In this document: positions 15,590-63,662 of the stretch, piece by piece
Layout of the letters: each line of letters opens with the position of its first letter
How positions within the stretch are numbered: the stretch's first letter is position 1
Source of the DNA: Candidatus Gastranaerophilales bacterium
GTDB taxonomy: Bacteria; Cyanobacteriota; Vampirovibrionia; Gastranaerophilales; Gastranaerophilaceae
Direction: 5' to 3'
Assembly (NCBI GenBank): GCA_944324305.1
Contig: CALUVV010000010.1
Coordinates: forward strand, 22,732-86,731
Length of the DNA: 64,000 bases
Translations under genes and position numbers: made by a program
Notes under the pieces: model-generated
Told to the model about the DNA's origin: nothing
What the model saw: the letters and a program-made list of their open reading frames with translations, nothing else
The model's database searches: none

Positions 15590-17805
15590 ATGAATAAGTT
15601 ATTAAGAGAAACAGATGCCCAATTATCGCAAGTTCAACCAGGCTTGTGTAGTGGTGTCTGCGCCCGTAATGTCGGGGGGGGGGCAATCTAAGCCGCTCCA
15701 ATCAACGTTTTTGGGGATTTACCCTTGCGGAAATGATGGTTGTAATGCTCATCATGAGCATAATTTTGGCTGCCATGGCGCCCGCCATGACAACTCGCAG
15801 CAGAGCAGACGGTTCGGTTAATTCTTCCCCGTGGCGCTATTCTCCCGAGAATTTATCCGATGCCTATTTTGGAGCAGGCCAAAGCCAGATAGCCATGATA
15901 GGTCAGCCCAATAAGCTTGAAACGGATGATGCAGCTCGGTTAATATTGAATGCTAGTGCTTCATTACCAATTCATTTGTCCTTTAAACGTGACAATACCA
16001 CTGTCGGGCGCTTACAGCTTGTCGATACTAACCTTGTTTTAGGCAGCGGGAGTATGGACCATTTAACAACGGGCGGCAGTAATAATATCAGTATCGGTCC
16101 TAATAATTTAACTCAAGTAACGAGCGGCAGCAGTAATATTGCCGTAGGTGATAATGCCCTAATATTAACCACAAGCGGCAATAATAATATCGGCATCGGT
16201 ACCGCACTTGCATCAAATGTCGACGGCAGTTATAATGTCGCCGTAGGTGATGATTCATTAACGAAAGCAAACAGCAGCTGGAACACCGCAGTCGGTCATA
16301 ATGCCTATCAGTTAGGCACCGGCGGGAGTAATACTATAGTCGGCGGCGATGCCATGTCTGAAGGCAGCGGAACAAATAACGTTGCCGTTGGCACCAATTC
16401 TTTATGGTACGGCAATGGTGACGGCAATGTAGCTGTGGGAGCCAATTCAAATTATAGAGATAAAACGTTAACCAATTTTACGAACACAACTGCCGTAGGT
16501 TTTTCTTCTTATGCAAGCGGTGATGGATCTGTTGCAATAGGTTATAATTCATATGCAAATAGCGGGTGTGCTATAGGTAATCAAGCTCAAGCAACGAACT
16601 CCGGTATGGCAATAGGAACCGAAGCTAATGCAAGCTCGACAGTTTCAATAGCAATCGGGCTTGGAGCAGAGGCAAGCGATTCGGTAGCACTCGCTATAGG
16701 ACGCGGCTCCGCGGCTAAGAGGCCGGAAACAGTTGCTATAGGCTCCGCTGCGTTAGCTGATGGAACTGCTTCAATTGCCATTGGGTTAAATTCAAGCTCT
16801 TCTAATAGCAGCTCTGTTGCTCTAGGTGACAGTGCTTATGTAATGCGTTCAGGAGGTATAGCAATAGGCAAAAATGCAAGAGTAGGTTCTTCCAATTCGA
16901 CTATGTATGGTGACAATAGTATTGCTATAGGTCAAGGTGCAAGTGCAGGGAGTGATTATAGTATATCAATAGGTTTAAATGCCGGTAATACTAATAAAGG
17001 TTCCGGTAATATCGCAATCGGTTCTTCGGCTTGCAGTAATGTAACCGGCAGTCATAAGGTTTGTATAGGTAATTATTCAGGACCTAAAAGCGGTGACAGC
17101 TGGGCAAGTGACAGTGAAGAACGTATATTTATCGGCGGACACTCTAAATTTAATGACGGTAATGCCGTTCTTGAAGTACACAATAAATCAGGTTATGAAG
17201 GAAGAATATTTGATGGTAAATATTTACCCGGCTCTGTCGTTGTTGTAAATGGCGCGTTATTGGTAAAAGGCGGTATTATAACATCAATGCCCTGGGCTGA
17301 TGACGGTCATTTTAAAGGTGACGGCGGTTTGAATATGGTAGGTCGTACAGGCGGCCAGCTGGAGCCGATTAATACGGAAGGCGGTACTGCTGAACTTGAT
17401 TTTCAAGAGATTTTTTCAACAAGTGAACGTGGGCAATTCCGCTCTCCAAATAACTACACAAACAAAAGTGTTTATAACGGATGGTCAGACTTTCGTTTAA
17501 AATATGTCGGTAAAGAGTTCAAGTCCGGCTTAGATAAAATTCGAGAATTAAAAGTATTTAATTATACCTTTAAAAAAGACGCAGCTAAAACACCTCATGT
17601 CGGTGTAATCGCTCAGGATTTGGAAAAAGTATTTCCGGAAGCAGTAAAAAAAGGAGCTGACGGTTTCCTGACAATTCGCATGGAAGACATGTTCTATGCC
17701 ATGATAAATGCAATCAAAGAACTTGATTTAAAATATCAAGCACAAGAAAAACGGATTAATGAACTTGAAGTCCGTATAGAAAAACTTGAAGCAAGATTAA
17801 AGTAA
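15590..17805 (+). CDS. Prepilin / YadA-like head / S74 chaperone fusion, out of frame at a G10 tract
   Basis: AAGGAGTGGAAGCA precedes ATG 15590. With the ten G's at 15674-15683 translation stops at TAA 15689 after 33 codons; with 11 (or 8) it continues as a ~738-residue protein. In that frame: a ~43-residue leader ends FWG, then FTLAEMMVVMLIMSII gives a type IV prepilin N-helix. Many short repeats of the Hep_Hag/YadA-head type follow (pattern xxAIGxxAxA, about 16070-17060). The C-terminus has a peptidase_S74 intramolecular chaperone with SDFRLK (Ser and Lys five apart, the self-cleaving dyad), GVIAQDLEKVFPE and a terminal coiled coil. The combination suggests a trimeric, self-maturing adhesin displayed by pilus-type export. 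It lies next to the putative origin. An ORF from ATG 15733 exists but lacks a ribosome site and the pilin leader. Confidence 0.8.
15674..15683 (+). repeat. G10 homopolymer in prepilin leader
   Basis: Ten consecutive G between codon 28 and the prepilin motif. At this length the frame reaches TAA 6 nt later; plus one base restores the prepilin frame. Typical of slipped-strand contingency loci. Confidence 0.85.
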
Positions 17806-17825
17806 ATTTTATACTGAAAAAAGAT

Positions 17826-17900
17826 AAGCCCAAAAATGGTGTGGTAAGACGCCGGGCTTACTTTCATTCCTTCTCCCGCTTAATTTGGGCGGGAGTTTTC
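17826..17900 (+). terminator. Two hairpins ending the pilin-fusion transcript
   Basis: The first pairs TAAGCCC with GGGCTTA about 30 nt apart. The second, CTCCCGC (17873) with GCGGGAG and a TTTTCC tail, is a good intrinsic terminator. Confidence 0.75.
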
Positions 17901-17930
17901 CTTATATAAAAAAAATATATTTATTACCTG

Positions 17931-18012
17931 TTGACAAATTATTTGTTTTGTGATATAAAGAATGTGGGGTAAATGTATATTTATAAGTCTTGTCAAACGA
18001 CGAGACTTTCTT
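17931..18012 (+). promoter_or_regulatory. Strong promoter followed at once by a terminator-like hairpin (yeiH leader)
   Basis: TTGACA (17931-17936), 17-bp spacer, TATAAA (17954-17959). About 25 nt after the expected start, AAGTCTTGTC pairs with GACGAGACTT around an AAAC loop and is followed by TTTCTTTTTC, so a transcript would end near 18012 at ~47 nt. Either an attenuated leader for yeiH or a short RNA. A weaker TATAAA near 18044 could serve yeiH separately. Confidence 0.6.
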
Positions 18013-18067
18013 TTTCGGGAAACCGTGTTTTTATGATATACTTATAAAACCAACTTACGGAGGAATT

Positions 18068-19063
18068 ATGATTAAGAAAATATATACAGGTGTACTGTTT
18101 TGCGCCTTATTTGCCCTGATTTGCTATTTTACTTGCAAATGTCATTTTTGCACTGCAATTAATTTAAATTCATTAACACTTGCAATAATTGTAGGCATGC
18201 TTATCGGAAATTTACTGCATAAATTTATTCCTGAAAATTTAAGGAACGGAATTGCTTTTGCTTCAAAAAAGATATTAAGATTTGCAATTGTTTTATACGG
18301 TTTCAGAATAACATTCCAACAAATATTTGCCGTAGGCTTGGACGGTTTATTTGCTGATATTGTAATGCTTACTACCACATATCTTTTCGGGTATTATCTC
18401 GGAACACGCGTGTTTAAATTGGATAAAGATTTGTGTATGCTGACTGCAATCGGTTCGTCAGTCTGCGGCGCTGCGGCTGTTTTGGGTACGGATGCGGTAT
18501 TAAAAGCAAAATCGCATAAAGTTTCTTTAGCTGTTGCAACTGTTGTGTTATTCGGAACAATTTCGATGTTTTTATACCCTTTCTTGTTTAAGCTCGGAAT
18601 TTTAAGTCCTGAATTCTTCGGGATATATATAGGTTCAACCGTTCACGAAGTTGCACAGGTTGTTGCGGCCGGAAGTGCTGTTTCTCCCGTAGCTATGGAT
18701 ACGGCTGTTATAGTAAAGCTTACAAGAGTAATGATGCTTGTACCTTATTTGTTCTTGCTTGGCATGTATTTATCCAGGAAATCAGGTACAAAGTGCGAAA
18801 AAATTCCTATGCCTTTGTTTGCAATATTTTTTGTAGCGGTTTGCGGTTTTAATTCTCTTAATATTGTGCCGCTTCCCGTAAAGTCATTTATAATAGAGTT
18901 TGATGTATTTTTACTTACAATGGCAATGTTTGCTCTGGGATTGGAAACTAATTTTGAAAAAATAAAGGGGCTTGGTTTAAAGCCTATATTGCTCGCAGGT
19001 TTGATGTTTATATGGCTTGTCGGCGGCGGAATGCTTGTTAACAAGGTTTTATATCTTTTGTAA
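18068..19063 (+). CDS. YeiH/UPF0324 family membrane transporter
   Basis: About 331 residues and ten or so TM helices. The family is described as putative sulfate exporters or anion carriers; no substrate is established for this member. Family marks: LAIIVGMLIGN near the N-terminus, SSVCGAAAVLG in the middle and HEVAQVVAAG. The ATG at 18068 follows GGAGGAATT and is preferred over an upstream TTG at 17990 that lies inside the leader hairpin. Not obviously in an operon. Confidence 0.85.
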   Translation: MIKKIYTGVLFCALFALICYFTCKCHFCTAINLNSLTLAIIVGMLIGNLLHKFIPENLRNGIAFASKKILRFAIVLYGFRITFQQIFAVGLDGLFADIVMLTTTYLFGYYLGTRVFKLDKDLCMLTAIGSSVCGAAAVLGTDAVLKAKSHKVSLAVATVVLFGTISMFLYPFLFKLGILSPEFFGIYIGSTVHEVAQVVAAGSAVSPVAMDTAVIVKLTRVMMLVPYLFLLGMYLSRKSGTKCEKIPMPLFAIFFVAVCGFNSLNIVPLPVKSFIIEFDVFLLTMAMFALGLETNFEKIKGLGLKPILLAGLMFIWLVGGGMLVNKVLYLL

Positions 19064-19164
19064 ACTTAATGTAACAAAACATTCTTTTTGTTAAAGATTT
19101 TTGAAAAAATTACCGAGATTAAATTTACGGACAGAGCAATATATAATTGGAGGTAAATTTTTAA

Positions 19165-19524
19165 ATGGAATCAAAAACTGAAAATGTTATGGTCATGGAC
19201 TGTAACACGGTTGCCAATGGCATTATGCGCGACATAACAGACATTGACGCAATGGAGAGAATGCTTAGCAGTGAATTGAGTTCCGAAGACTTATTCAAAA
19301 TTGATTGTGCTATTTTATCATCATTAAGAAATACTGCGGATTTTTCGCGTGATTTACTGCGCCAGCTTGAAGAAGGCAGATTTGAAACAGTTGCAGTCAA
19401 GCCGCAAAAATCACTTGACAGCGAACTTGCCGAAATTCAGCGTGAAACTATGGTGGATATTACATTACCCTTGCAGAATATGTTTGATGACATGATTAAT
19501 TATGTTTCGGAAGCATTTGTTTAA
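19165..19524 (+). CDS. Hypothetical acidic helical protein, 119 residues
   Basis: Not recognised. The ATG follows a GGAGG at good spacing. Mostly amphipathic helix, acidic, with no signal peptide or TM and no cysteine cluster apart from two scattered Cys. Single gene ended by a strong terminator shared with der on the other strand. Confidence 0.65.
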   Translation: MESKTENVMVMDCNTVANGIMRDITDIDAMERMLSSELSSEDLFKIDCAILSSLRNTADFSRDLLRQLEEGRFETVAVKPQKSLDSELAEIQRETMVDITLPLQNMFDDMINYVSEAFV

Positions 19525-19530
19525 GGTTTA

Positions 19531-19564
19531 AAAAAAAGAGAGAGGTTATACCTCTCTTTTTTAC
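19531..19564. terminator. Bidirectional intrinsic terminator
   Basis: AAAAAGAGAGAGG with CCTCTCTTTTTT around a short TTATA loop, symmetric A/T tails; serves the convergent 19165 gene and der. Confidence 0.85.
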
Positions 19565-20892
19565 TTTTTATCTTTTTCTGAGCGTTCTCTGACTGAAAGT
19601 TTAATCGGAGTACCGAAAAATCCGAAAGCTTCACGAAGTTTATTTTCAATATAGCGTTTATAATGGTCTTTCATTAAATCCGCGTTATTGGCAAAGATTA
19701 CAATATGCGGCGGCTGTACGCCCGTTTGTGTTACGTACATAATTTTGAGGCGTTTGCCTTTTGAAGATGCGGGAGGATTAAGCATATAGGCTTCTTTTAT
19801 AATTTTATTTAAAAGACCTGTTGAAATGCGTTTAGTACACTCTGCATAAACCTCTTCGGCTTCCGTAAAAATTTGATGTAATCTTTGTTTTGTAACTGCT
19901 GAAATATAAATTTTCGGTGCATATTCCAGAAACGGGATATCATTAGCGAGTCTTTTGTTGTACTGATTAATTGTGTTTGATTTTTTATCTTCAATCAAAT
20001 CCCATTTGTTGATTGCAATAATTAATCCCTTACCAGCTTCTGTTATAATAGATGCAATCTTTTTATCCTGATCGGAAATTCCCTGTGTTGCATCAATTAC
20101 AAGCAGTGCAACGTCGCAGTCTCTGATTGAGCGGATTGCTCTGTCTACTGCAAATTTTTCAACACCCCAGTCAACTTTTGATTTTTTTCTGATACCTGCA
20201 GTATCTACAATTATAAATTCTCTGTCTTTGTAAGTTATTGAGCTGTCGATGCTGTCGCGGGTTGTTCCCGAAATATCCGAAACTATTACTCTGTTTTCGT
20301 TTAAAAGGGCATTTACTATTGAAGATTTACCCGCATTCGGTCTGCCGACAATTGCAATTTTAATTGTATCATCATCTTCCTGTTCAATGTCCTGCGAAAA
20401 ATCTTCGGTAACTAAATCTAACAAGTCGCCAACACCGCCTGAACCATGTAGAGCTGATATTCCGATTGGTTCTCCTATTGCAAGAGAATAAAAATCATTT
20501 ACCATTAACAGGGATTCGGGATTGTCTGATTTATTAACGGCAAGAAAAACAGGTTTTCCCGATTGTCTGAGAATATTTGCAATATCGTAATCCACAGGGT
20601 TAACACCTTCTTTGCCGTCAACAATGAAAATAATTTTGTCGGCTTCTTCACAGGCAATTTTTGCCTGATCAAAAATAGAAAGCATAATTTCGTCTTCATC
20701 ACCCGGAATAATTCCGCCCGTGTCAATTACCGTAAAAATTTTGTTCTGCCATTCGACATCAAAATAAATTCTGTCGCGTGTAACCCCCGGCAAATCGTCA
20801 ACTATAGAATTTCTTGTTCCTATAAGACGGTTTACAAAGGTTGATTTGCCTACATTCGGGCGTCCTACTATTGCTACAATCGGTATTCTCAT
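19561..20892 (-). CDS. der: Ribosome assembly GTPase Der (EngA)
   Basis: Double-GTPase needed for 50S subunit assembly. 443 residues with two G domains: GRPNVGKST at 9-17 and GRPNAGKSS in the second, each with a DTAG/DTGG switch, NKSD and NKWD, then the C-terminal KH-like domain. The frame is open upstream for 41 more codons, but those fall in a duplicated non-coding element. TATAAT at 20899-20904 lies exactly 6 nt before ATG 20892 with an extended TGC, so the mRNA is probably leaderless and this is the start. Confidence 0.95.
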   Translation of the reverse strand: MRIPIVAIVGRPNVGKSTFVNRLIGTRNSIVDDLPGVTRDRIYFDVEWQNKIFTVIDTGGIIPGDEDEIMLSIFDQAKIACEEADKIIFIVDGKEGVNPVDYDIANILRQSGKPVFLAVNKSDNPESLLMVNDFYSLAIGEPIGISALHGSGGVGDLLDLVTEDFSQDIEQEDDDTIKIAIVGRPNAGKSSIVNALLNENRVIVSDISGTTRDSIDSSITYKDREFIIVDTAGIRKKSKVDWGVEKFAVDRAIRSIRDCDVALLVIDATQGISDQDKKIASIITEAGKGLIIAINKWDLIEDKKSNTINQYNKRLANDIPFLEYAPKIYISAVTKQRLHQIFTEAEEVYAECTKRISTGLLNKIIKEAYMLNPPASSKGKRLKIMYVTQTGVQPPHIVIFANNADLMKDHYKRYIENKLREAFGFFGTPIKLSVRERSEKDKK

Positions 20893-20898
20893 AAGGCT

Positions 20899-20907
20899 AT
20901 TATAGCA
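20899..20907 (-). promoter_or_regulatory. Extended -10 promoter of der (leaderless)
   Basis: Reads TGCTATAAT on the minus strand, ending 6 nt before the start codon. recJ has the matching arrangement TGCTATGAT at 23893-23901. Confidence 0.7.
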
Positions 20908-20941
20908 TAAATATTTTTTTAAGCCGTAAATTGTAATATGT

Positions 20942-21061
20942 GAAGTCAATCGGCATATGTTACAATATGTAAATATGAATTTTAATATGCCTGAAACCTG
21001 CTTATAATGCCTCATAGGATAGGATAGGATAGGATGGGGTGCGGGCGTGGCAACAATTTTT
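20942..21061. repeat. Duplicated intergenic element, copy A, with four AGGAT units
   Basis: About 120 bp matching 23924-24042 with few differences; the right-hand ~65 bp is nearly identical. It holds TTATAATGCCTCAT, then AGGAT four times, then GGGGTGCGGGCGTGGCAAC. It begins ~50 bp upstream of der and ends ~50 bp upstream of the plus-strand gene at 21108. TATAAT within it could be a plus-strand -10. Neither mobility genes nor target duplications are seen. Confidence 0.8.
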
Positions 21062-21107
21062 ATTTATATAGTTTGTCTTTGCTGTAATTAATAAAAGGAG
21101 ATAAATT

Positions 21108-21491
21108 ATGGACATCAATTGTAAAGTATTAACTTTAAAAGGAAAATTATTATTATGCCAAAAATTTGGGGATAAACTTTATCTGCGTGATGGGAGATTT
21201 CCCGATAAAATTCTGCAATCCAAAAGTTATGAATACGGCTATATTGTCCGTGAAGATTTTGTAAACAAACGTTCATCTTCGGTTCCTCATGCTTCTATAA
21301 AAGATGTCGGCGAGTTTAATGTAAAAGACGGAACAATGCGAATGGGGGGTACTCAAAAAAAACAGAATATTTTAAGTTTGGATATCTTCAACATACCTTC
21401 CGGCAAAAATTACGGCTCTGCTGAATTGGGACCTCTGGGTAAAAAGTATCTGGAGAAAGTAATTACTTATATAAAAAATAGTGTAAAATAA
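21108..21491 (+). CDS. Hypothetical protein, 127 residues
   Basis: Not recognised. AAAAGGAGATAAATT gives a strong ribosome site for ATG 21108. The beta-rich N-terminal half (CKVLTLKGKLLLCQKFGDKLYLRDG) might be a small barrel. A Gly-rich loop and a C-terminal helix follow. No signal peptide. A G6 run lies inside the gene in frame and is much shorter than the pilin tracts. The duplicated AGGAT element lies directly upstream. Confidence 0.65.
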   Translation: MDINCKVLTLKGKLLLCQKFGDKLYLRDGRFPDKILQSKSYEYGYIVREDFVNKRSSSVPHASIKDVGEFNVKDGTMRMGGTQKKQNILSLDIFNIPSGKNYGSAELGPLGKKYLEKVITYIKNSVK

Positions 21492-21508
21492 ATATTTTCC
21501 TACTTTTT

Positions 21509-21535
21509 AAACCCGTTTTTACGGGATTTTTTTTT
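21509..21535 (+). terminator. Intrinsic terminator
   Basis: AACCCGT/ACGGGATT stem with a four-base loop and a run of nine T's; ends the 21108 gene, and lies just beyond the end of recJ. Confidence 0.7.
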
Positions 21536-21543
21536 GAAAAAAT

Positions 21544-23886
21544 TTAAATCAGAAGTGAATAAACATCATCTTCCAGCAGGCTTTTTTGAAATTCTTCACA
21601 TTCATCAATCATATCAGTGAGAATTGCATATTTCGGTGAATGCAGCACCTGTGAAATATCAAAAGCCGCATTGTAATCAACTACATAATAATCTTTTGTG
21701 CGTTCTTTTATTGTAATCATTCCCATATCATCAAAAATTGAGAAAAGAAGCTCAAATACCTGATATGATTTCCCCAGAAAGCTTGCACAGCGGCGAAGTT
21801 CAACTTTTCCGCCGTTGTTGTGGCAGGCAAATTTAAGCATTCCGCAAACAGTTTTTAAAAATTCTTCTTCATCCATATATTTTATGTCATAGTTCATAAA
21901 ATGAATTGAAAGCGGATTTGTTTGGTTAAGAATTCTGTCAAAAGTTTCCTTATCCGCGGGGTAGTCAAAAAACATCAAAGCATCACAGGGACGTAAATTG
22001 TCACGGGTTATAATACGTGCATACAGCTCTGAAAAAGGTTTTAATTTATCCGATACTGATTTGCTCTCTGCAAAAATAAGAATATTTTGTTTTGAATTTT
22101 TAACATAGTCATTGACCTGCGGCAGAATATCCGTTTTTTTACGGTGGTCATAGAGTTTCTGCTGAGGAAGATTTTCTTCTTCTTTTAAAAATTCTGAATG
22201 AATATCATCAATAATAAGCTGAACGCTTGTAACCCCGTTATATTCATTGATTTGCGGGTGAAATGCAATGTCAAGCGTGTCGCCTTTTACAAGAGAAATA
22301 TCTCCGTCTTTCCAGCGTATACAGTTAAATTCGCCTGTTCCTGCCTGACAGGTAAGCCGTAAGTGGTTTTTATTTTCACCCATTAAGCGTTTTTCTTTAA
22401 TTTTAAGATTTTTTATGGCAAAAACAGGGCTCGGGTTATTTTGTCCGAAAGGTTCGAGCATAGATATTTGTTCAACTAAATCAACGTCAATATCATCGGG
22501 CATAAGCTCTAAATCAATATTGATAAACGGTTTTAAATCTTTACCCTGCGACATTTCTTTAACGGTTTTGCAAAGTGCGGATTTCACTTTATCAAAAGAT
22601 GCTTTTTCTTCACTGAAAGCAAGTCCCGCAGCCATAGCGTGGCCGCCGAAACCGTCCAAAAGTTCGGCATTCATTGAAATTGTTTCATAAAGGTTAATTC
22701 CCTCAACGCTTCTTGCAGAACATCTGAACTGTTTTGTTTCATCCGAATATGTCATTAAAAAAGTCGGTTTGTAATACTTTTCAACAAGCATAGAGGCAAC
22801 AATACCGATAATTCCTATATGCCATTCTTTATTAAATAATACTATTGCGGAATTTCTGTTCCCTTCGGCTTTAACCATTTCATCAGCTTCGGCAAAAATA
22901 TTCTGGCAGAGTTCCTGACGAACTTTGTTGAATTCGTTTAGGGTTTGAACAGACATTTCAATTTCCTGTTTGTTGTCGGAGATTAAAACCTTCAAAGCTG
23001 CATCAACCGTATCAAGTCGTCCCGATGCATTAATTCTCGGTGCAACGCCGAATGCAATTTGTTCGGACGTAATCTGGCCTTTATAGCCTGCGCTGTCTAA
23101 AAGTCTTGATAAACCGTAATGTTTTCCGTTAGAAATAAGTTCAAGACCCTTTGTAACGTAATATCTGTTTTCTCCGATTAAAGGAACCAGATCCGCAACG
23201 GTACCTACTGCAACGTAGGGTAAAATTTCCGGTATAAATTCAAGTTTGTTGTATTTTTCTAATAGTCCTTGTGCAACTTTAAACGCAACCCCGACACCTG
23301 CAAGAGAAGTAAGACTTTCAATTTGTCTTGCCGTTAAATTTTCATCCAGAGCATCAGGAGCTTTAGGGTTGATAATTCCGTATGCTTTAGGCAAGATTTC
23401 AGGCGCTTCGTGGTGGTCTGTTATTATTACGTCAATTTTAAAGCTGTTTAAAAAGTTAACGGCATCAACGTCTGAAATTCCGCAGTCACAGGAAATAATT
23501 ACTTTCGGCTTAACCTGTGTCATTAATTTTACAAGAGCTTTAGTGTCAAAGCCGTGTCCTTCTTTTTCTCTGTTCGGAATAAAGTAATGCACATCGGCGT
23601 TTAAGTATTTAAAAGTTCTGTAAAGCAGAGAAGTGGATGTAACACCGTCAGCATCGAAATCACCGTGAATAACTATTTTTTCGCCGTTATCAATTGCCGA
23701 TGCAAGCCTTTCAACACATTTTTCCATATCGGTGAAAGCTTTCGGGTGGGTTAATTTCATCTCAAGAGGGTGTATAAATTCGTAAATTTCCTCATCGGAT
23801 TTTATTCCTCTTGAATGTAAAAGTCTTTTTAAAAGTGATTTTTCTTGTCCGTCGTATTTATTAAATATCCACTCTTTCATTGCCAT
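21544..23886 (-). CDS. recJ: Single-stranded-DNA exonuclease RecJ
   Basis: 5'-3' ssDNA exonuclease of DHH type acting in recombination and mismatch repair. About 780 residues, at the long end for RecJ. Catalytic motifs present: HGDFDADGVTS, ISCDCGISD and ITDHHE (DHH), then NASGRLD and the DHHA1 GGHAMAAG; an OB fold and a C-terminal domain of about 200 residues follow. The start is ATG 23886 (next in-frame ATG 23880). TATGAT (23893-23898) lies 6 nt before it, so the mRNA is leaderless. Upstream codons of the open frame lie in duplicated element B and are rejected. Confidence 0.94.
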   Translation of the reverse strand: MAMKEWIFNKYDGQEKSLLKRLLHSRGIKSDEEIYEFIHPLEMKLTHPKAFTDMEKCVERLASAIDNGEKIVIHGDFDADGVTSTSLLYRTFKYLNADVHYFIPNREKEGHGFDTKALVKLMTQVKPKVIISCDCGISDVDAVNFLNSFKIDVIITDHHEAPEILPKAYGIINPKAPDALDENLTARQIESLTSLAGVGVAFKVAQGLLEKYNKLEFIPEILPYVAVGTVADLVPLIGENRYYVTKGLELISNGKHYGLSRLLDSAGYKGQITSEQIAFGVAPRINASGRLDTVDAALKVLISDNKQEIEMSVQTLNEFNKVRQELCQNIFAEADEMVKAEGNRNSAIVLFNKEWHIGIIGIVASMLVEKYYKPTFLMTYSDETKQFRCSARSVEGINLYETISMNAELLDGFGGHAMAAGLAFSEEKASFDKVKSALCKTVKEMSQGKDLKPFINIDLELMPDDIDVDLVEQISMLEPFGQNNPSPVFAIKNLKIKEKRLMGENKNHLRLTCQAGTGEFNCIRWKDGDISLVKGDTLDIAFHPQINEYNGVTSVQLIIDDIHSEFLKEEENLPQQKLYDHRKKTDILPQVNDYVKNSKQNILIFAESKSVSDKLKPFSELYARIITRDNLRPCDALMFFDYPADKETFDRILNQTNPLSIHFMNYDIKYMDEEEFLKTVCGMLKFACHNNGGKVELRRCASFLGKSYQVFELLFSIFDDMGMITIKERTKDYYVVDYNAAFDISQVLHSPKYAILTDMIDECEEFQKSLLEDDVYSLLI

Positions 23887-23923
23887 AATAAAATCATAGC
23901 ATAAAGTTTTAAGACCAAAAAGA

Positions 23924-24042: not shown

Positions 24043-24101
24043 CGTCTTATTGACTTTTCATGTGTATAACCGATTTATAAATAGAAAGGAAACAGGGAAA
24101 A

Positions 24102-29879: not shown

Positions 29880-29881
29880 TA

Positions 29882-30604
29882 TTAATAAGTCATTTCCCAA
29901 TTGTCGTTAAGAATTTTACCGAAACATCCCCACCATGAGGTTGTTGATGAGATACAATATTTTTCAAAATTATCCTCTCTGACATCTGTCGAACACGGGG
30001 CCTGAGCACAGTCATCATCAATTACACCGTTGCTAAAAAGATTAAGTGCAAAAGTATCTCTCCCTAAAATATTGGGTCCTTTTTTGCCGTTTATATCAAG
30101 ATGAATTTGTATTTGATATGTAGAAACAGCCCCCAAACTTATTAGTGAGCCGTTTGCAAGAATATAATGCTTAAAATCATATTTTTCATCATCAGTGAAA
30201 GGTTTACTGCTTGTTCCATCCATTTTTTTGTAATCTGTAGCGATACAATCTGCCGTATCTGTATTACAATCCTGAACAATTTTAAAATATTTTTTCATAA
30301 ACGCATCAATTGCATTACCGTCCATAAGTCCTGCCTCTGTTAGGTTTATTGCATTTTTATCAGTCATATATTGCAATGCAGCCTGAGAAAGTTCATTATA
30401 TACCTTATGTAATTGCGTAACATAAGTTTTGCGCTGATGATTTTGCATCAAAGAAGGAACGGTCATTGCGGAAACTACACCTATAATCCCTAAAGTTACC
30501 AAAACTTCTGCTAAGGTAAATGCAATTTTACGAACGTTGCTAAAGGTTCCTGCGTGTCTGGCATCTTTTGCCGGAATAAATCCGTTTATGCAAATCTTAT
30601 TCAT
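29882..30604 (-). CDS. Type IV prepilin/pseudopilin, in-frame copy without a homopolymer
   Basis: 240 residues. A 28-residue basic leader ends VRKIA, followed by FTLAEVLVTLGIIGVVSAM, the hydrophobic N-helix of type IV pilins and type II pseudopilins (Glu at +5). The C-terminal domain has paired cysteines (CNTDTADC, CAQAPC, CISSTTSWWGC) and a DINGKKGPN segment typical of this lineage's pseudopilins. It is a near-duplicate of 30932-31641; the two share the body up to about residue 120 almost exactly at DNA level. Unlike the four other prepilins here it has an uninterrupted reading frame. Confidence 0.88.
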   Translation of the reverse strand: MNKICINGFIPAKDARHAGTFSNVRKIAFTLAEVLVTLGIIGVVSAMTVPSLMQNHQRKTYVTQLHKVYNELSQAALQYMTDKNAINLTEAGLMDGNAIDAFMKKYFKIVQDCNTDTADCIATDYKKMDGTSSKPFTDDEKYDFKHYILANGSLISLGAVSTYQIQIHLDINGKKGPNILGRDTFALNLFSNGVIDDDCAQAPCSTDVREDNFEKYCISSTTSWWGCFGKILNDNWEMTY

Positions 30605-30931: not shown

Positions 30932-31641
30932 TCAGTAAGTCATTTCCCAGTTGTCGTTAAGAATTTTACCGAAACATCCCCACCATGAGGATGTTGTTGA
31001 TGAAATACAATATTTTTCAAAATAATTCTCTCTGGCATCTGTCGAACATGGAGGCTGAACACATTCATCATCAATTATACCGGTGCTATAAAGATTAAAA
31101 GCAAAAGTATCTCTCCCTATAATGTTCGGACCTTTTTTACCGTTTATATCAAGATGAACTTGTATTTTATTGTTAGAATAAGCACCTAAACTTATTAGTG
31201 AGCCGTTTGCAAGAACATAATGCCTAAAATCATATTTTTCATCATCAGAGAAAGGTTCAATGCCTGCCCCATCCATTTTTTTGTAATCTGTAGCGATACA
31301 ATCTGCCGTATCTGTATTACAATCCTGAACAATTTTAAAATATTTTTTCATAAACGCATCAATTGCATTACCGTCCATAAGTCCTGCCTCTGTTAGGTTT
31401 ATTGCATTTTTATCAGTCATATATTGCAATGCAGCCTGAGAAAGTTCATTATATACCTTATGTAATTGTGTAACATAAGTTTTTCTCTGGTGATTTTGCA
31501 TCAAAGAAGGAACGGTCATTGCGGAAACTACTCCGATAATTCCTAAAGTTACTAAAACTTCTGCTAAGGTAAACCCGGATCCCCTTGCTATACAATAACT
31601 ACAACGGGGGGGGGGCAGTTCAAAGCTTTTAATGTCAACAT
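30932..31641 (-). CDS. Type IV prepilin, out of frame at a C10 tract
   Basis: AGGAGG (31649-31654) lies 7 nt before ATG 31641. With ten C's (31606-31615) translation gives 17 residues and stops at TAG. With eleven it continues through RGSGFTLAEVLVTLGIIGV into the body shared with the 29882-30604 prepilin. The leader is unlike its sibling's and is Cys/Pro-rich (NCPPPRCSYC in the ON frame). The body ends with the same CISSTT...WWGCFGK segment. An internal ATG at 31519 gives only the headless body and has no ribosome site. Either phase-variable and OFF, or mis-called by one base. Confidence 0.8.
31606..31615 (-). repeat. C10 (coding strand) homopolymer in prepilin leader
   Basis: Ten C's on the coding strand, encoding Pro rather than Gly, in the same position relative to start and cleavage motif as the G10 tracts of three other prepilins. 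Length 11 or 8 would be in frame. Confidence 0.85.
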
Positions 31642-54557: not shown

Positions 54558-54582
54558 GAATTTTTATAGTATAATATCAGTG

Positions 54583-55848: not shown

Positions 55849-55956
55849 TTTACGCACAAAAAAAATCGCTGAATTATGTTCAACGATAATTTATGTATTG
55901 TTAAATTTTGCTATCCCAAATCTCGGCAGCTGTTCTTAACAGCTTGGGGCTGCTTT

Positions 55957-56169: not shown

Positions 56170-56191
56170 AACACCACACCCCGTATAAGTT

Positions 56192-56419: not shown

Positions 56420-56596
56420 GAGCACACACTCCTTATAAAATCTATCAACAAAATCTTTATCGGATATGAGCCTTCAAAACTTTAAAGTTTTAAATAAGTT
56501 TGTTACATATTTTTACAATATCATCTGTTTAGAGGTTTGACTTTTGCATAAATATCATTAACATGTGTTTGAGAAGTTAGTAACCGAGGTTGTAGT

Positions 56597-57145
56597 ATGG
56601 CTAATAATAACGGAATACTTTCCGGTGTATATGCCGGTTTAACAAATACATATTCTTATCTTGCGTCGCAGTATCCTAACGGGCTTACGCTTGAAAATCT
56701 GACCGAAGCAAGGACAAAAACAACTAATTTAGGCGTTTTAAATCAAACTTTTGCATCTTACCTGCAAAATAATTTCGGTATGATTGATAAAGACGGCGAC
56801 GGAATAATTACGGCAGACGAAATGAATACGCTTTCTAACCGCATTTCAATGCAGGGCTTGACGAAAGCGGAACTTACACAGCTTTATGCATCAGGTGCAA
56901 GCGGACTTTCCGAAAGCACCATGTCAAAAATTTTGGAACACTTTGATGAAATGGACACAAACCATGACGGAAGAATTACGAGCGCGGAAATTGCCGCTTA
57001 TGATGTAAACTGCGCAAGAATGGAAGTTGAAGATAATTTTAATAACCGCCGTGCAACGGATATGTCAGTATTTTACGGTGACAGTTCGGCATCATCCGAT
57101 ACATACAGCCTGCTGAGCTACAAGTACAAATCAAACAACGACTAA
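56597..57145 (+). CDS. EF-hand calcium-binding protein
   Basis: 182 residues with two canonical EF-hand loops: DKDGDGIITADE at about 63-74 and DTNHDGRITSAE at about 118-129, all with Asp/Asn at positions 1, 3 and 5, Gly at 6 and Glu at 12. No signal peptide. Such proteins buffer or sense calcium; here probably cytoplasmic or exported by an unknown route. A TTGACT -35-like box lies about 60 bp upstream. Confidence 0.8.
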   Translation: MANNNGILSGVYAGLTNTYSYLASQYPNGLTLENLTEARTKTTNLGVLNQTFASYLQNNFGMIDKDGDGIITADEMNTLSNRISMQGLTKAELTQLYASGASGLSESTMSKILEHFDEMDTNHDGRITSAEIAAYDVNCARMEVEDNFNNRRATDMSVFYGDSSASSDTYSLLSYKYKSNND

Positions 57146-57196
57146 CCGATTTTACACACACACTAAACTTAGTAACGATACATTCGGAAAGGAAAC

Positions 57197-57232
57197 AACA
57201 GCTCGCATTAAATGGAGAGCTGTTTATTTTTT
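57197..57232 (+). terminator. Intrinsic terminator
   Basis: AACAGCTC/GAGCTGTT with a 12-nt loop and TATTTTTT tail. Confidence 0.75.
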
Positions 57233-57300
57233 AATATTGAAAACCGCACAAATATATGTTAAATTAATAGAGTAGCATTTTTAGTTAAGGAGCTTAAAAC

Positions 57301-58142
57301 ATGAGAATTAACGAACTTATTAAAGCCGGAGTGTCGGGGGGGGGGCGGATTTAGGCGCTCCTGCTAAATTTTTTAAATTTTTGTGCAATCCCTTTGTATC
57401 GGGTCAAGCGGCACGCTTGGCGTTTACTCTTGCCGAGGTGCTTATAACTTTAGGAATAATCGGAGTTGTAGCATCTTTAACGATGCCTTCATTAATTCAG
57501 AAACATAAAGAAAAAGAACTTATAACCCGTACAAAACGAGTTTATTCTGTAATTCAGAATGCTGTTCTTATGGCGCAGAAGGAAAACGATACTGTCGGGG
57601 ATAATACTTTTTTATTTGATACAAGTAAAACAAGCGCCGAAGTTGCTTCAAACTTCGCGAAATATTTTAACGGAGCAAAGGTTTGTGTTTCTGCCAGTAA
57701 AGACTGTACAAATTATTATTACAGTGTCAAATTCGCAACCAGAAGGAAAGATGATTCAAGCGATGTTACAATTGGTACAAACCTGCCTACGGCACGTATA
57801 ATTACAAATGACGGTGCAATAATAGCTATTGGGCAGCTGTCTTCATGTGAGAGGACATCAATCGATTGCGAAAGAGATGCTGATTATAACTGTATAAAAG
57901 ACGAAAACGGAAATACAACCGATGTTATGAAAACAAGTTATAATTGTGCTTTTATTGATTTTGATGTAAACGGACCAAAACCTCCTAACCAGTTTGGCCA
58001 GGACGTATATGAACTTTCTGTCAATGTTGATAAAATTGTTCCTAATCTTTCAAACCTGCCCGGAGGTAAAAGTTTTAAAAATATTTTGACCGGTGTTGAT
58101 AAATTAGAGTATACAAAATACAATGTAGGTGAAAGTGACTAA
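57301..58142 (+). CDS. Type IV prepilin, out of frame at a G10 tract
   Basis: AAGGAGCTTAAAAC precedes ATG 57301. Ten G's (57336-57345) give 17 residues and a TAG; eleven (or eight) restore a ~280-residue prepilin. In the ON frame a long leader ends ARLA, followed by FTLAEVLITLGIIGVVASL and the pilin body with Cys pairs (CVSASKDC, CERTSIDC). An internal ATG at 57381 gives the frame from NPFVSGQAARLA onward but no ribosome site. The flank after the tract (CGGATTTAGGCGCTCC) resembles that of two other tracts. Confidence 0.82.
57336..57345 (+). repeat. G10 homopolymer in prepilin leader
   Basis: Ten G after GTGTC; at this length TAG follows within 9 nt. Eleven or eight G would be in frame. Confidence 0.85.
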
Positions 58143-58144
58143 TT

Positions 58145-58177
58145 AAAAAAGCTCCGATAATTTCGGAGCTTTTTTAT
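58145..58177. terminator. Bidirectional intrinsic terminator
   Basis: AAAAAGCTCCGATA/TTTCGGAGCTTTTTT; shared by the prepilin and the convergent eno. Confidence 0.9.
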
Positions 58178-58182
58178 TTTAT

Positions 58183-59538
<1,356 letters not shown>

Positions 59539-59592
59539 TTATTGGTCTAAATATATGATGTATTGTATTTGAAAAATATATATAATTTTTTA

Positions 59593-60714
59593 ATGGATAA
59601 AAATCAATTACATCAAAAATTTGAAGAATTATATACTAAAAAATTAGAACCTAAAATTATCCCTCTTGAGCAAGAAAGAATATCCGTTGCAAAAGTATCA
59701 AATATTAATTTGTTAATTGCTGTACTTTGTCTTATTGGCTCTATCGGCGGTTTTTTGCTGTTATCAAAAGCATATATACTACTGTTGTCAATCCCTGCTG
59801 TAATAATATTTGTTATTGTAAGCAAAAGACAGCGTAAATTTAGATTAAAAATAAAGCAGCAGCTTTTGATGGAACTCTTTTCGTTATTTGGAAAGTTTAA
59901 GTATTGCCCTGATAAGGAACTTATAACAAGGAATGAAATATATAAAACAGGGTTATTTCCTAAATTCTCTCGTAAAAGAGATGATGACAGAATTATCGGT
60001 AATTACAAGGGGCTGGATATTATTATTGTTGAAACAGAGCTAACCCATACCGAAAGCGGAGGAGAGAAGAATTCAGACAATACTGTAACGGATTTTAACG
60101 GTTTAATTATAAAAACTACTCTAAATAAGCCTTACAAAGGAAAAACTCTTTTATATCAAAAAGCAATCGGTCAAAAAGGACAAAAGCAGGCAATTAAATC
60201 ACTTTTGTCAGATAGCCTGGGAGATGAACAAGCTGATAAAATAGCAAATTCAGATGTCGTTAATGCTGTAACAGGCGTACTGGCTTTTGCTGAAAAACTT
60301 CCGTTAAAGCATTTGAACTTATCTGAAGATGGCGTATCTGTATCTCTTAATAATAAAAATAGAGAAATCAGAGTTGCCGGTAATTTACAAAAAGTTACTC
60401 TGGAAGATTCGGAGTTTAATCAAATGTATGATATATATTCTGACGATCAGGTTGAAGCAAGATATATTTTGACACCGACTTTTATGGAAAGACTTAAAAA
60501 TGTCAGAGAAGTTATTGGCGGATTTGATGTTCATTGTCTGGTAGAGAACAAATATATTACTTTATTTATTCAAACTCCTAATGATTTCTTTGAAATCGGA
60601 AATATGTCAAATCCTATTAACAATAAAAAGAATTATGAATATATATTTGTTCAGTTAATTAATATATTTAATCTTATTCACTATTTTAAATTTGATAAAA
60701 AATTGGGCTTATAG
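59593..60714 (+). CDS. DUF3137 membrane protein, partner of LemA
   Basis: 373 residues from ATG 59593, which lies 6 nt after TATAAT (59581-59586), so leaderless. Two hydrophobic helices at about 40-85 (NLLIAVLCLIGSIGGFLLLS, then ILLLSIPAVIIFVIV) separated by a short polar stretch. A long soluble domain follows. DUF3137 proteins commonly stand next to lemA, as here (18 bp apart), and their function is unknown. Confidence 0.8.
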   Translation: MDKNQLHQKFEELYTKKLEPKIIPLEQERISVAKVSNINLLIAVLCLIGSIGGFLLLSKAYILLLSIPAVIIFVIVSKRQRKFRLKIKQQLLMELFSLFGKFKYCPDKELITRNEIYKTGLFPKFSRKRDDDRIIGNYKGLDIIIVETELTHTESGGEKNSDNTVTDFNGLIIKTTLNKPYKGKTLLYQKAIGQKGQKQAIKSLLSDSLGDEQADKIANSDVVNAVTGVLAFAEKLPLKHLNLSEDGVSVSLNNKNREIRVAGNLQKVTLEDSEFNQMYDIYSDDQVEARYILTPTFMERLKNVREVIGGFDVHCLVENKYITLFIQTPNDFFEIGNMSNPINNKKNYEYIFVQLINIFNLIHYFKFDKKLGL

Positions 60715-60732
60715 TAAAGAAAGGAATTTGAT

Positions 60733-61281
60733 ATGGAAATTTTACTTGTTGTCGCTGCTATTGCTGTTATTGGACCTTATTTCATTTATGTGCAGCTTAT
60801 TCAAAAGAAAAACAAGGTGAAAGAAGCTGAAGGCAGTGTTGATGTTCAACTTAAAAAACGTTACGATTTAATCCCTAATATTTTGACAATTGCCAAAAAG
60901 TTTATGGAACATGAAAGATCTTTAATTGAAGATATTACAAAACTTAGAACGCAAGCTGCAAAAGCAAATGAAATGTCCGAAAAAATAAAATTGGATAATG
61001 CAATTAAAGGCAAAATGGAACAGCTGATGATAAATGTTGAAAATTATCCGCAGTTAAAATCAGATGCAGCTATGGTTCAAGCAATGCAGACTTATGCCGA
61101 AGTTGAAGAGCATATTGCTGCTGCCAGAAGATTTTATAACAGTGCGGTAAATGAATTAAATAACGCTGTTGAAATTTTTCCCTCATCTGTTATTGCAGGT
61201 ATGTTGAATATTAAAGCCAAACCGTTTTTTGAAGTTCAGGAAAGCGAAAGACGTCCTGTTAATGCATCAGATATTTTGTAA
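60733..61281 (+). CDS. lemA: LemA family protein
   Basis: 182 residues. N-terminal TM (ILLVVAAIAVIGPYFIYVQ), then a long helical bundle with the LemA signature KRYDLIPNILTIAKKFMEHE, and FYNSAVNELNNAVEIFPSSVIA near the end. Family role is unclear. AAAGGAATTTG upstream; operon with DUF3137. Confidence 0.9.
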   Translation: MEILLVVAAIAVIGPYFIYVQLIQKKNKVKEAEGSVDVQLKKRYDLIPNILTIAKKFMEHERSLIEDITKLRTQAAKANEMSEKIKLDNAIKGKMEQLMINVENYPQLKSDAAMVQAMQTYAEVEEHIAAARRFYNSAVNELNNAVEIFPSSVIAGMLNIKAKPFFEVQESERRPVNASDIL

Positions 61282-61305
61282 TTAAATAAAATATTATAAA
61301 ATGAC

Positions 61306-61338
61306 AACATCCCTTCTGTTTATATGGAAGGGATGTTT
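61306..61338. terminator. Bidirectional intrinsic terminator
   Basis: AACATCCCTT/AAGGGATGTTT with a 12-nt loop; between lemA and the convergent MATE gene. Confidence 0.75.
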
Positions 61339-62719
61339 AGTTATCAGATAAACAGCTGTGAAGTTTATTTTTAACTTTATAAATAATATGTTTAATGCTG
61401 TATAAATACCCGAAAAATAATATTGTTGATGCGCTTACCCATGCAATCGGACCCGAGTAAAATATTCCGATATAACCGAATTTTAATGCCAGATAAACAG
61501 CCGCAAAAGATCTCATTACAAGTTCCGCGATACAGGCAAGCAGAGGAAATAAGGTTTCCCCCATACCCTGTAATGCATTTCTGTATATAAAAATTTGACC
61601 AAGAAAGAAGTAAAATATTGTGCTTATCAGCAGGTAATTGTGCGCAATATCTATAATTTCTTTTGTTGCGGTACCGATAAAAGCCCCGATAATATCAGTA
61701 CCCCATATTCGCATTACAAAAGCCATTACTATACTTAAAATAATATTTATAGTTGAAGTTTTTATAACTCCCAGACGAATTCTTTTGAATTTCTTTGCTC
61801 CGAAGTTCTGTGCAACGTAAGCCGCAAGCGCAACACCGAATGACATCATCGGCAGCGTTGCAATTTGTTCAATTCTTAAAGCGGCGGTTAATGCTGCAAT
61901 TACATTAGCTCCGAACGTGTTGCAGACACTTTGAATAATTATAATTCCTATACCTATAATTGAAAATTGTATTGCCATAGGTATTCCGACACGCAAGTGT
62001 TCGTATGCGGAATTGTAGAAATGCCTGTCAAATTTAATCAGCCATTCGCCTCTTCGTATATGCAATATAGGAAGCCTGTATTTAATGAAAAACAAACACA
62101 ATATAACTGAAATTGCCTGTGATAAAATTACGGCAAAAGCAGAACCCGGAACTCCCATGTTAAAAATCTGAATAAAAATCAGTGCAAGAATTATATTTAT
62201 AACAGAAGCTATAATCAGAAAATATAAAGGTGTTTTACTGTCACCCAGAGCCCTTATTATACTCGCAAGCATATTATACATTGTTGTGGAAATTAATCCT
62301 ATAACAATAATTTCCACATACCAGTAAGCGTTATGATAAATATTTGCGGGAACATTCATCCAATGCAGTATATGGTTCATAAACACAGTACATACAATTG
62401 AAAATAAAAGTGTCACAATTGTGCTTAATACAGTTGATACAACAACCGAATTTCTTACACCGGGAATATCTTTTGCTCCGTATCTCTGCCCTGTGACAAC
62501 CGCAAAACCGTTTGTTAACCCGACAATAACAAACATTATAAGAAAAAATAACGGTGCCACCGCACCTACTGCCGCAAATGGTTCTACCCCGAGAGTTCTG
62601 CCCACAATTACCAGATCGGCAATATTATATAGCTGCTGAAAAATATTCCCTATTAACAGCGGAACTGAAAATAAAAGTATATGTTTTAAGGGACTTCCCT
62701 TGGTCATGTCGGTAATCAT
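61337..62719 (-). CDS. MATE-family multidrug/cation antiporter
   Basis: About 460 residues and 12 TM helices. Na+ or H+ driven exporter. Two homologous halves; N-lobe marks LLIGNIFQQLYNIADLVIVG and C-lobe QNFGAKKFKRI. ATG 62719 is chosen because AAAGG lies ~9 nt upstream; the frame extends to 62740. Single gene; substrate unknown. Third drug-export system in the window. Confidence 0.88.
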   Translation of the reverse strand: MITDMTKGSPLKHILLFSVPLLIGNIFQQLYNIADLVIVGRTLGVEPFAAVGAVAPLFFLIMFVIVGLTNGFAVVTGQRYGAKDIPGVRNSVVVSTVLSTIVTLLFSIVCTVFMNHILHWMNVPANIYHNAYWYVEIIVIGLISTTMYNMLASIIRALGDSKTPLYFLIIASVINIILALIFIQIFNMGVPGSAFAVILSQAISVILCLFFIKYRLPILHIRRGEWLIKFDRHFYNSAYEHLRVGIPMAIQFSIIGIGIIIIQSVCNTFGANVIAALTAALRIEQIATLPMMSFGVALAAYVAQNFGAKKFKRIRLGVIKTSTINIILSIVMAFVMRIWGTDIIGAFIGTATKEIIDIAHNYLLISTIFYFFLGQIFIYRNALQGMGETLFPLLACIAELVMRSFAAVYLALKFGYIGIFYSGPIAWVSASTILFFGYLYSIKHIIYKVKNKLHSCLSDN

Positions 62720-62853
62720 GAGCTTAACCTTTATAAACAATTTTTCTCTCTGTATTTTATTATAAACTAAAAAGATAATTAATTTGAATATTGCAGCAGA
62801 CTGATTAATATGTTATACTTTATAATGTTGAAATTATTTAAAGGAGCATTATT

Positions 62854-63662
62854 ATGAAAAGATTGAAATTTAATCCCGTATCGGGGGGGGGGCAGTTCTA
62901 GGCTCCTTTCAAGGTTTTACTCTTGCCGAAGTTCTTGTAACTCTGGGCATAATAGGAGTTATATCCGCATTAACCGTGCCTTCATTAATACAAAATAATG
63001 CGGAAAAACAGTATGTAGCACGTTTGAACAAATTTTATAGCCTGATGAATCAAGCTATTGCTTCAGCAAGATTAGAAAAAGGAGACATAAATTACTGGGG
63101 ATTAACCCTTGCAGGCAATACTACAGAGGATAATTTGACGGATGAACAAATTGCTGCAGGTAAAACAACAGTTGACCGATTTTGGAATATAATGTCAAAT
63201 TATTTGAAAATAATTAAGCATTGCAAGTCCGATGAAAATTGCGAAACATATGAACGTTATTCATTAGACGGGACGCGTTTTGGTACGTTTAAAAATAACG
63301 TAACACTCGCGGACGGTACGAGTATTGTAGGTACTACAGTACTTTATCCTAAGTGTGACGGTGTTCGTGGTAACACTAACATGCTTCGGGATATTTGCGG
63401 AGAAATTTTTGTTGATGTAAACGGTTCTAACCCGCCAAATAAAACTGGCGTTGATGTATTTATATTTTATTACGGCAATCAGGGAGTAATTCCTGCCGGT
63501 ACTTATAATGATACCGCCTTTTCATTTACTTCTCACTGCAATTATTCAAAAGCCGGAAATTTAAATGGTTACGGTTGTGCAGGCTGGGTGCTTCAAAAAG
63601 AAAATTTGGATTATTTATATTGTAATGACTTAAGCTGGTCAGGAAAATCGGAATGTAAATAA
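62854..63662 (+). CDS. Type IV prepilin, out of frame at a G10 tract
   Basis: AAAGGAGCATTATT precedes ATG 62854. Ten G's (62883-62892) give 15 residues and a TAG; eleven (or eight) restore a ~269-residue prepilin. ON frame: leader ends GSFQG, then FTLAEVLVTLGIIGVISAL and a body with paired cysteines (CKSDENC, CDGVRG...C) and the DVNGSNPPNKTG segment typical of this lineage's pseudopilins. An internal ATG at 62976 starts beyond the prepilin motif and lacks a ribosome site. Confidence 0.82.
62883..62892 (+). repeat. G10 homopolymer in prepilin leader
   Basis: Ten G after GTATC; TAG follows 6 nt later at this length. Flanks (TCGGG..., TTCTAGGCTCC) match those of the 57301 and 15590 genes. Confidence 0.85.

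What the first reader, a model, noticed from the sequence alone, without database searches (positions are those of the whole stretch)
15590..63662. Four prepilin genes share a 10-nt G/C homopolymer that puts the prepilin motif out of frame: a candidate phase-variable pilin repertoire
At 15674-15683, 31606-31615 (minus), 57336-57345 and 62883-62892, a good Shine-Dalgarno and ATG lead within 9-28 codons into exactly ten G or C, followed by a stop and then, one frame away, by an (A/G)-FTLAE(V/M) prepilin N-helix. The same arrangement at four separate loci, together with one intact prepilin (30604) lacking a tract, argues for contingency loci that switch individual surface pilins on and off. Phase-variable poly-G is well known in Neisseria and Campylobacter; I know of no description for this lineage.
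Basis: partly seen in the sequence, partly recalled or inferred. Interest (0 to 1): 0.93.

Follow-up and report, generated by a model that had tools for sequence, protein, structure and literature searches.

The report
Default-off pilin genes with ten-G switches
In a gut bacterium from a non-photosynthetic branch of the cyanobacteria, dozens of pilus-protein genes (probably more than a hundred in the genome) begin with a run of usually ten G or C that leaves them one base out of frame, so that a small change in the run's length would likely switch each surface protein on.

Summary
The four tracts are real and not chance (0.006 expected in the window). The organism is a Candidatus Gastranaerophilales gut bacterium (Cyanobacteriota), in the genus that holds "Fusobacterium sp. 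CAG:439". The window shows a small part of a genus-wide system. The own genome has 169 runs of exactly ten G, six of eleven and none of nine; 17 of 18 same-genus genomes carry 8-126 ten-G runs, and 4 of 11 genomes from other families have one to three. In 404 kb read, 43 of 53 prepilin N-helices follow such a tract. Across seven species, 112 of 120 scorable tract prepilins need a length of 8, 11 or 14, whichever strand codes; the usual length is 10, so 112 of 120 are off as assembled and 8 are on. Off genes are under purifying selection (close pairs, dN/dS 0.09-0.22). One allele (99.3% identical between two species) carries 8 G (on) in one and 10 (off) in the other; two eleven-G on-genes have ten-G counterparts. 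I read this as poly-G phase variation with a default-off register. Recoding at a fixed run is the main rival. Switching inside a population is not shown; reads are needed.

The parts
15590..15691 (+). Locus A: ATG (SD AGGAG 15577-15581) to the stop reached at ten G; 33-residue off-frame peptide
15674..15683 (+). Locus A: G10 tract in the leader
15718..17805 (+). Locus A: prepilin N-helix (FTLAEMM...) and body with YadA_head repeats and a Peptidase_S74 chaperone domain; natural ORF 15733-17805
31588..31641 (-). Locus B: ATG at 31641 to the stop reached at ten C; 17-residue off-frame peptide
31606..31615 (-). Locus B: C10 on the coding strand (G10 on +)
30932..31573 (-). Locus B: prepilin N-helix (FTLAEVL...) and body; natural ORF 30932-31519
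57301..57354 (+). Locus C: ATG to the stop reached at ten G; 17-residue off-frame peptide
57336..57345 (+). Locus C: G10 tract
57423..58142 (+). Locus C: prepilin N-helix (FTLAEVL...) and body; dN/dS 0.15 against the CAG:439 counterpart (whose tract lies outside the locus held)
62854..62901 (+). Locus D: ATG to the stop reached at ten G; 15-residue off-frame peptide
62883..62892 (+). Locus D: G10 tract; also ten in the CAG:439 counterpart
62916..63662 (+). Locus D: prepilin N-helix (FTLAEVL...) and body; dN/dS 0.09; homologues carry PF20318 (precomputed), while the ORF itself matched no Pfam family
29882..30604 (-). Tractless prepilin, in frame as assembled

Best explanation
Prepilin genes in this genus carry a run of usually ten G or C in the leader, one base short of the reading frame, and they most likely form a default-off phase-variable repertoire in which slippage of the run during replication switches single pilins on and off. 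SHOWN: tract, register, conservation across species, and length differences at matching loci. INFERRED: the run sits mostly at ten, so most tract pilins are off; a step to eleven (or a loss of two) would fuse the start codon to the N-helix and give a processable prepilin; because each tract would slip on its own, each cell would show a small, changing subset of the pilins. The leader is a natural place for such a switch because prepilin peptidase cuts it off, so its sequence is free to vary (general knowledge of prepilins; a single Peptidase_A24 gene is present). UNTESTED: switching within a clone, surface display, and what holds the run at ten and keeps the G on one strand along most contigs.
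For: (1) Register: in stretches of seven species, 112 of 120 tract prepilins with a unique SD-ATG class need length 2 mod 3, 85 sense and 27 antisense; at ten bases 105 of 106 are off; five of seven 11-G, the one scorable 8-G and the one 12-G are on. (2) Same locus, different length: one near-identical allele (99.3% over about 1.9 kb, collinear neighbours) has 8 G (on) in the own genome and 10 (off) in the CAG:439 genome, the only indel in about 1.1 kb aligned. Two 11-G on-genes have 10-G counterparts. (3) A protein 100% identical to the 11-G on-gene of L186 over 220 aa is recorded starting inside the N-helix, as expected of an out-of-frame copy; its source is not shown and its contig is 2.3 kb, so this is a hint only. 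(4) Off genes are conserved: dN/dS 0.09, 0.15, 0.22 for close pairs with ten in both species, 0.03 for an 11/10 pair. (5) The homopolymer is maintained: 20 of 20 matched tracts are pure at 84-99% identity. (6) Leaders with GGG or PPP read in frame occur in public proteins (20 of 116; 47 of 240 fetched; a plain string test that also catches unrelated leaders).
Against: No reads, so no length mixture in a population was seen. The usual length is far sharper (own genome 0 of nine, 169 of ten, 6 of eleven) than in Campylobacter (9: 53%, 10: 26%; PMC6321876, passages). Sixteen of 20 matched tracts have the same length; 4 of 20 G/C tracts carry an indel against 2 of 15 A/T runs of 8 or more, 2 of 42 of seven and 7 of 138 of six, so hypermutability is not shown by this test. 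Ten-G off loci need +1 (101) far more than +2 (4), although nines and elevens are about equally common over 12 genomes (62 and 60); simple slippage does not predict that. MutS is present. Eleven of 137 tract prepilins have an internal SD start, including two of the on-cases. Few tracts lie clear of any ORF, so length cannot be shown to be independent of coding.
Confidence: 0.6

Rival explanations
1. The tract is fixed at ten and the genes are expressed by recoding: a -1 ribosomal frameshift or +1 transcriptional slippage on G10/C10 yields a fraction of full-length prepilin in every cell.
For: Off loci need +1 in 101 of 105 ten-G cases, both with G10 and with C10, as a -1 shift would predict. 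Length and purity are strongly conserved. Off genes are under strong purifying selection.
Against: Variants of 8, 9, 11, 12 and 13 exist and some are in frame as DNA. The same length occurs in non-pilin genes that are in frame at ten (5 of 9 non-pilin tracts of the own-genome stretches) and in at least one tract clear of any ORF, ten in both species (C1_30k:160471). Recoding does not predict a single G strand along a contig whatever the gene direction. No conserved element is seen 3' of the tract beyond about 16 nt, apart from N-helix codons, in 71 sense tracts; no RNA fold was run.
Confidence: 0.22
2. Sequencing or assembly undercalls a true run of eleven, and the pilins are simply in frame.
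For: The register is nearly uniformly one short, and homopolymers are hard to call; PMC9187656 (passages) warns that database G-tract lengths can be wrong.
Against: The same peak at ten appears in assemblies that by their record titles come from different assemblers and projects, while 11, 12 and 13 are also called. In-gene tracts such as that of the family 2 glycosyltransferase are in frame at ten in the own genome and in its sister. A constitutive gene needs no pure homopolymer, yet 20 of 20 matched tracts are pure.
Confidence: 0.07
3. The G10 element is primarily a DNA signal tied to replication or recombination (oriented site, hot spot for shuffling pilin leaders), and the effect on frame is secondary.
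For: One strand per contig, C at both flanks and a weak TTTAAGCT-like flank in sense, antisense and non-pilin tracts; some alignments between species end at a tract or leader (window loci C and D), and leader modules are shared between paralogues.
Against: At least 20 alignments run straight through tracts. It does not explain why 112 of 120 prepilins share one register or why 43 of 52 tracts sit before a prepilin N-helix.
Confidence: 0.08

Closest known systems
Neisseria pilC phase variation (homopolymer in the reading frame; G 9-20 in PMC5953494, passages read)
   Same: Homopolymer inside the frame of a pilus gene; a unit change shifts the frame.
   Different: Two pilC genes per genome against dozens of prepilins here; gonococcal maximum 54 and meningococcal 47 phase-variable loci, N. 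lactamica 36-82 (PMC5953494, passages) against 175 runs of ten or eleven G here.
Bifidobacterium breve sortase-pilus G-tracts (PMC9187656, passages read)
   Same: Gut commensal; a G10/G11 tract in the first pilus gene sets ON/OFF; slippage was measured by maximum-depth sequencing; a G10 locus was 93.4% G10.
   Different: Sortase pili, two loci in the strain studied; not a type IV prepilin leader and not a large repertoire.
Campylobacter poly-G phasome (PMC6321876, passages read)
   Same: Poly-G as main contingency sequence, mostly inside ORFs.
   Different: [quoted passage not shown] here a sharp peak at 10 and 35 of 137 tract prepilins with poly-C coding.
Neisseria pilE/pilS antigenic variation (mostly recalled; one passage of PMC5953494 mentions it)
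   Same: Large pilin repertoire; exchange between copies is suspected here too.
   Different: There one expression locus and silent cassettes; here 121 of 137 tract copies have their own SD and ATG that reach the pilin frame at some length.

Membership tests
Simple-sequence-repeat phase variation (contingency loci) | Repeat tract far beyond chance | tested here: met
   0.006 expected against 4 in the window; 169 exact ten-G runs genome-wide
Simple-sequence-repeat phase variation (contingency loci) | Unit gain or loss moves the ORF in or out of frame | tested here: met
   112 of 120 tract prepilins in one register; 8 on and 112 off as assembled
Simple-sequence-repeat phase variation (contingency loci) | Length differs between matching alleles of related genomes | tested here: met
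   4 of 20 matched tract pairs differ, one at 99.3% identity
Simple-sequence-repeat phase variation (contingency loci) | Reversible length mixture within one population | not testable with these tools
   no reads available
Simple-sequence-repeat phase variation (contingency loci) | Tract mutates faster than other sequence | tested here: inconclusive
   4 of 20 G/C tracts against 2 of 15 A/T runs of 8+ with an indel
Type IV prepilins (N_methyl, PF07963) | Leader ending in G/A, then F-T-L-A-E-V and a hydrophobic helix | tested here: met
   all four loci and 53 N-helices in 404 kb, found by a motif with some variation allowed
Type IV prepilins (N_methyl, PF07963) | Pfam N_methyl above curated cut-off for the window genes as assembled | tested here: not met
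   window C 16.3 bits and the intact gene 18.7 against 21.2; the natural ORFs of A, B and D start inside or after the motif and give no N_methyl match. The own genome has 146 N_methyl matches at E<=0.001, with only 150 of 211 candidates scored
Type IV prepilins (N_methyl, PF07963) | Prepilin peptidase in the genome | tested here: met
   one Peptidase_A24 match in the own genome
Neisseria-type pilE/pilS antigenic variation | Single expression locus, silent cassettes without their own start | tested here: not met
   121 of 137 tract prepilins have their own SD-ATG; promoters not tested
Programmed recoding at a slippery run | Full-length product from a fixed out-of-frame template | not testable with these tools
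   needs transcripts or protein

The most novel reading that the evidence does not exclude
A surface-protein lottery by length homeostasis: a DNA-level process keeps poly-G runs at exactly ten, on one strand of each replication arm, and well over a hundred prepilins in one genome have evolved to be readable only at the neighbouring length, so each cell displays a handful of pilins drawn by chance from the set.
Probability: 0.32. Interest if true: 0.9.

Novelty: new variant of a known kind. Interest (0 to 1): 0.8.

Why it matters
If right, a gut lineage related to cyanobacteria (to my knowledge barely cultured) runs a larger poly-G repertoire than those I read about (up to 81 phase-variable genes in Campylobacter, 82 in N. 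lactamica), aimed mostly at type IV prepilins. It offers a clean test of how run length is held at one value and how a register is selected so that the usual state is off. It also warns that dozens of pilins per genome are likely mis-annotated as truncated.

Tried and rejected
Chance: rejected. Pilin-only system: rejected, 9 of 52 tracts in the own-genome stretches are not at a prepilin by my motif test. All non-pilin genes in frame at ten: my early idea, rejected; 5 of 9 are in the own genome, and in the sister genome several are not. Non-coding tracts as proof that length is set without regard to frame: I first counted seven, but a wider ORF check puts two of them in genes and another lies by a pilin helix (flank), so only a few remain and I dropped this as a main argument; for that I lowered the best explanation from 0.63 to 0.60 and raised recoding from 0.20 to 0.22. 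Loss of mismatch repair as cause: not supported, MutS_I is found in the own genome and 17 of 18 same-genus genomes; MutL was not searched. G strand = leading strand: GC skew agrees at 144 of 173 tracts, but long-ORF direction shows no consistent bias, so I keep it as likely only. Viral contigs: no relative of gene D and no match to the motif. An internal start behind the tract that would make the tract irrelevant: found with an SD in 11 of 137; 85 of 137 have no internal start codon at all.
Full report
OBSERVATION. The window holds exactly four G/C runs of seven or more, all ten long, at the stated places. Each lies between a Shine-Dalgarno/ATG and a prepilin N-helix; at ten bases translation stops after 15-33 residues, and the pilin frame is one base away. 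About 0.006 such runs are expected.

SCALE. The window lies in a 2.2-Mb, 16-contig genome, 99.98% complete. That genome has 169 runs of exactly ten G, 6 of eleven and none of nine. Of 18 same-genus genomes, 17 have 8-126 ten-G runs and one (G013) has none; of 11 genomes from other families of the order, 4 have one to three. Eleven other same-genus genomes were also scored for 9 and 11: ten is the usual length in ten of them; in G002 eleven is (15 v 12).

WHERE THE TRACTS ARE. I read 404 kb of the own genome (window included; C1 30-250 kb, plus six stretches chosen because they hold an eleven-G run). Of 52 tracts, 43 stand before a prepilin N-helix. Of 53 N-helices found, 43 have a tract within 260 nt and 10 do not. 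N_methyl matches: own genome 146 (150 of 211 candidates scored), same-genus genomes 16-144, 10 of 11 other genomes 7-36; G022, another family, has 88 with no ten-G run. One Peptidase_A24 is present. Of the nine non-pilin tracts in the own stretches, five lie in an ORF that is in frame at ten; carriers include a family 2 glycosyltransferase, and one gene next to a tract has a hit below cut-off to Peptidase_M91.

REGISTER. In stretches of seven species (G000, G001, G004, G007, G010, G012, G015) there are 137 tract prepilins, 102 sense and 35 antisense; 120 have one unambiguous SD-ATG class, 16 have no scorable ATG and one has two possible registers. Of the 120, 112 need a tract length of 2 mod 3 (85 with G, 27 with C on the coding strand). 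By length: ten, 105 off and 1 on; eleven, 5 on and 2 off; nine, 4 off; eight, 1 on; twelve, 1 on; thirteen, 1 off. In all 112 are off and 8 on. The start-to-tract distance falls in all three phases, so the register is not simply copied with one leader, though many leaders are related. Of the 105 off ten-runs, 101 need +1 and 4 need +2. Off peptides are 11-83 residues, median 15.

LENGTH CHANGE AND SELECTION. Against CAG:439, 20 tracts could be aligned with their best match (mostly collinear; one or two may be paralogues): 16 equal length, all ten, and 4 that differ (8/10, 11/10, 11/10, 10/11), all 20 pure. A fifth difference (10/11 at C1_30k:156529) is listed but was scored equal by the aligner, and three of the counterparts carry a second tract of another length nearby. 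The 8/10 pair lies in a stretch 99.3% identical over about 1.9 kb with no other indel in about 1.1 kb aligned; most other matched loci are 84-96% alike and one more is at 98.8%. This is the strongest sign of switching: one allele, on in one genome and off in the other; an internal SD start is also present in that gene. Close pairs with ten in both species have dN/dS 0.09, 0.15 and 0.22, an 11/10 pair 0.03; locus C gives 0.15, but its partner's tract lies outside the locus I hold. More distant pairs in the same list (60-76% protein identity, dS 1 or more) gave 0.09-0.21, one not computable, and are too saturated to use. A public protein 100% identical to the on-gene of L186 over 220 aa begins inside the N-helix (44 member sequences), as an off copy would; its source is not shown and the contig is 2.3 kb, so an end effect is possible.

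ELEMENT. On the G strand the flanks are mostly TC before and CA/CG after, with a weaker TTTAAGCT-like stretch 6-14 nt on, seen in sense, antisense and non-pilin tracts (71, 26 and 20 tracts). Along a contig the G is mostly on one strand whatever the gene direction: 35 of 35 on C1 30-250 kb. In G004, 18 of 19 contigs with two or more listed ten-runs are uniform and C52 changes once (counted by eye, which lists 100 of 126). Two fetched pieces are mixed, C62 of G004 and C1 of G015, each through a single 8-base run. GC skew agrees with G on the leading strand at 144 of 173 tracts, gene direction does not help. In two Helicobacter genomes (11 and 12 ten-runs) flanks are mixed, while the four contigs with several tracts are also uniform, so one-strandedness may not be special to this genus.

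MECHANISM. Committed reading: replication slippage at a run whose usual length is ten; register selected so that ten is off; eleven or eight is on. Shown: tract, register, conservation, length differences, selection. Inferred: slippage as the cause, rare on-states, surface effect. Not explained: why eleven rather than nine is the on-length, and why nines are absent here. Recoding at a fixed G10/C10 explains the +1 bias better, but not the on-alleles at 8 and 11 or the one-strand rule.

LITERATURE. Full-text searches: Gastranaerophilales + phase variation (0 papers), Melainabacteria + pilin (6, listing), poly-G tract + phase variation + four more terms (6, listing), Gastranaerophilales + prepilin (1; passages read mention type IV pilus genes only), homopolymeric tract + phase variation + gut microbiome + metagenome (1, listing), phase variation + pilin + poly-G + two more terms (8, listing), poly-G tract with leading and lagging strand (0). 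None of what I saw describes this system. Passages read: PMC9187656, PMC6321876, PMC5953494, PMC5877343. The library holds openly licensed papers only.

Noticed in passing
window 15718-17805 (+): Locus A joins a prepilin N-helix to YadA_head repeats and a C-terminal Peptidase_S74 (endosialidase chaperone) domain: a pilin-anchored trimeric-fibre-like architecture that I do not recall from the literature (not searched in papers).
   Followed up: partly
L174-L184, L185, L189, L190 and proteins P0001-P0356: Prepilin leaders carry shared modules (CYNSD with a TATAAT-like promoter, VSGQAARL, PRPFGERVRERG, duplicated FTLAE) in this genus and in other homologues, as if the cleaved leader were a tolerant landing place for repeats.
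   Followed up: partly
C1_30k:140823 (L181) against G004 C65:374 (L235): A pilin stretch is 99.3% identical between two genomes that are mostly 84-96% alike at matched tract loci, which suggests recent exchange between species.
   Followed up: partly
G013 (same genus): The only same-genus genome without ten-G runs is also the only one without a MutS_I match (92% complete, so absence is uncertain) and has 16 N_methyl matches, the fewest.
   Followed up: no
G022 (other family of the order): 88 N_methyl matches but no ten-G run: a pilin expansion without the tract system.
   Followed up: no
G004 C70 near 15737/15763, C76 near 19260/19295, C64 near 12023/12051, C79 near 145/182: Two tracts 26-37 nt apart; at C70 visibly duplicated with their flanks.
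   Followed up: no
C1_30k:160471 and its counterpart G004 C79:18291: A ten-G tract clear of any ORF, ten in both species, about 58 nt upstream of an ATG with an SD; it may change promoter or leader spacing.
   Followed up: partly
C1_30k:183505, 203711; L188:10002: Gap sizes suggest that whole tract pilins are present or absent between otherwise collinear neighbours in related genomes, like cassettes; junctions not inspected.
   Followed up: no
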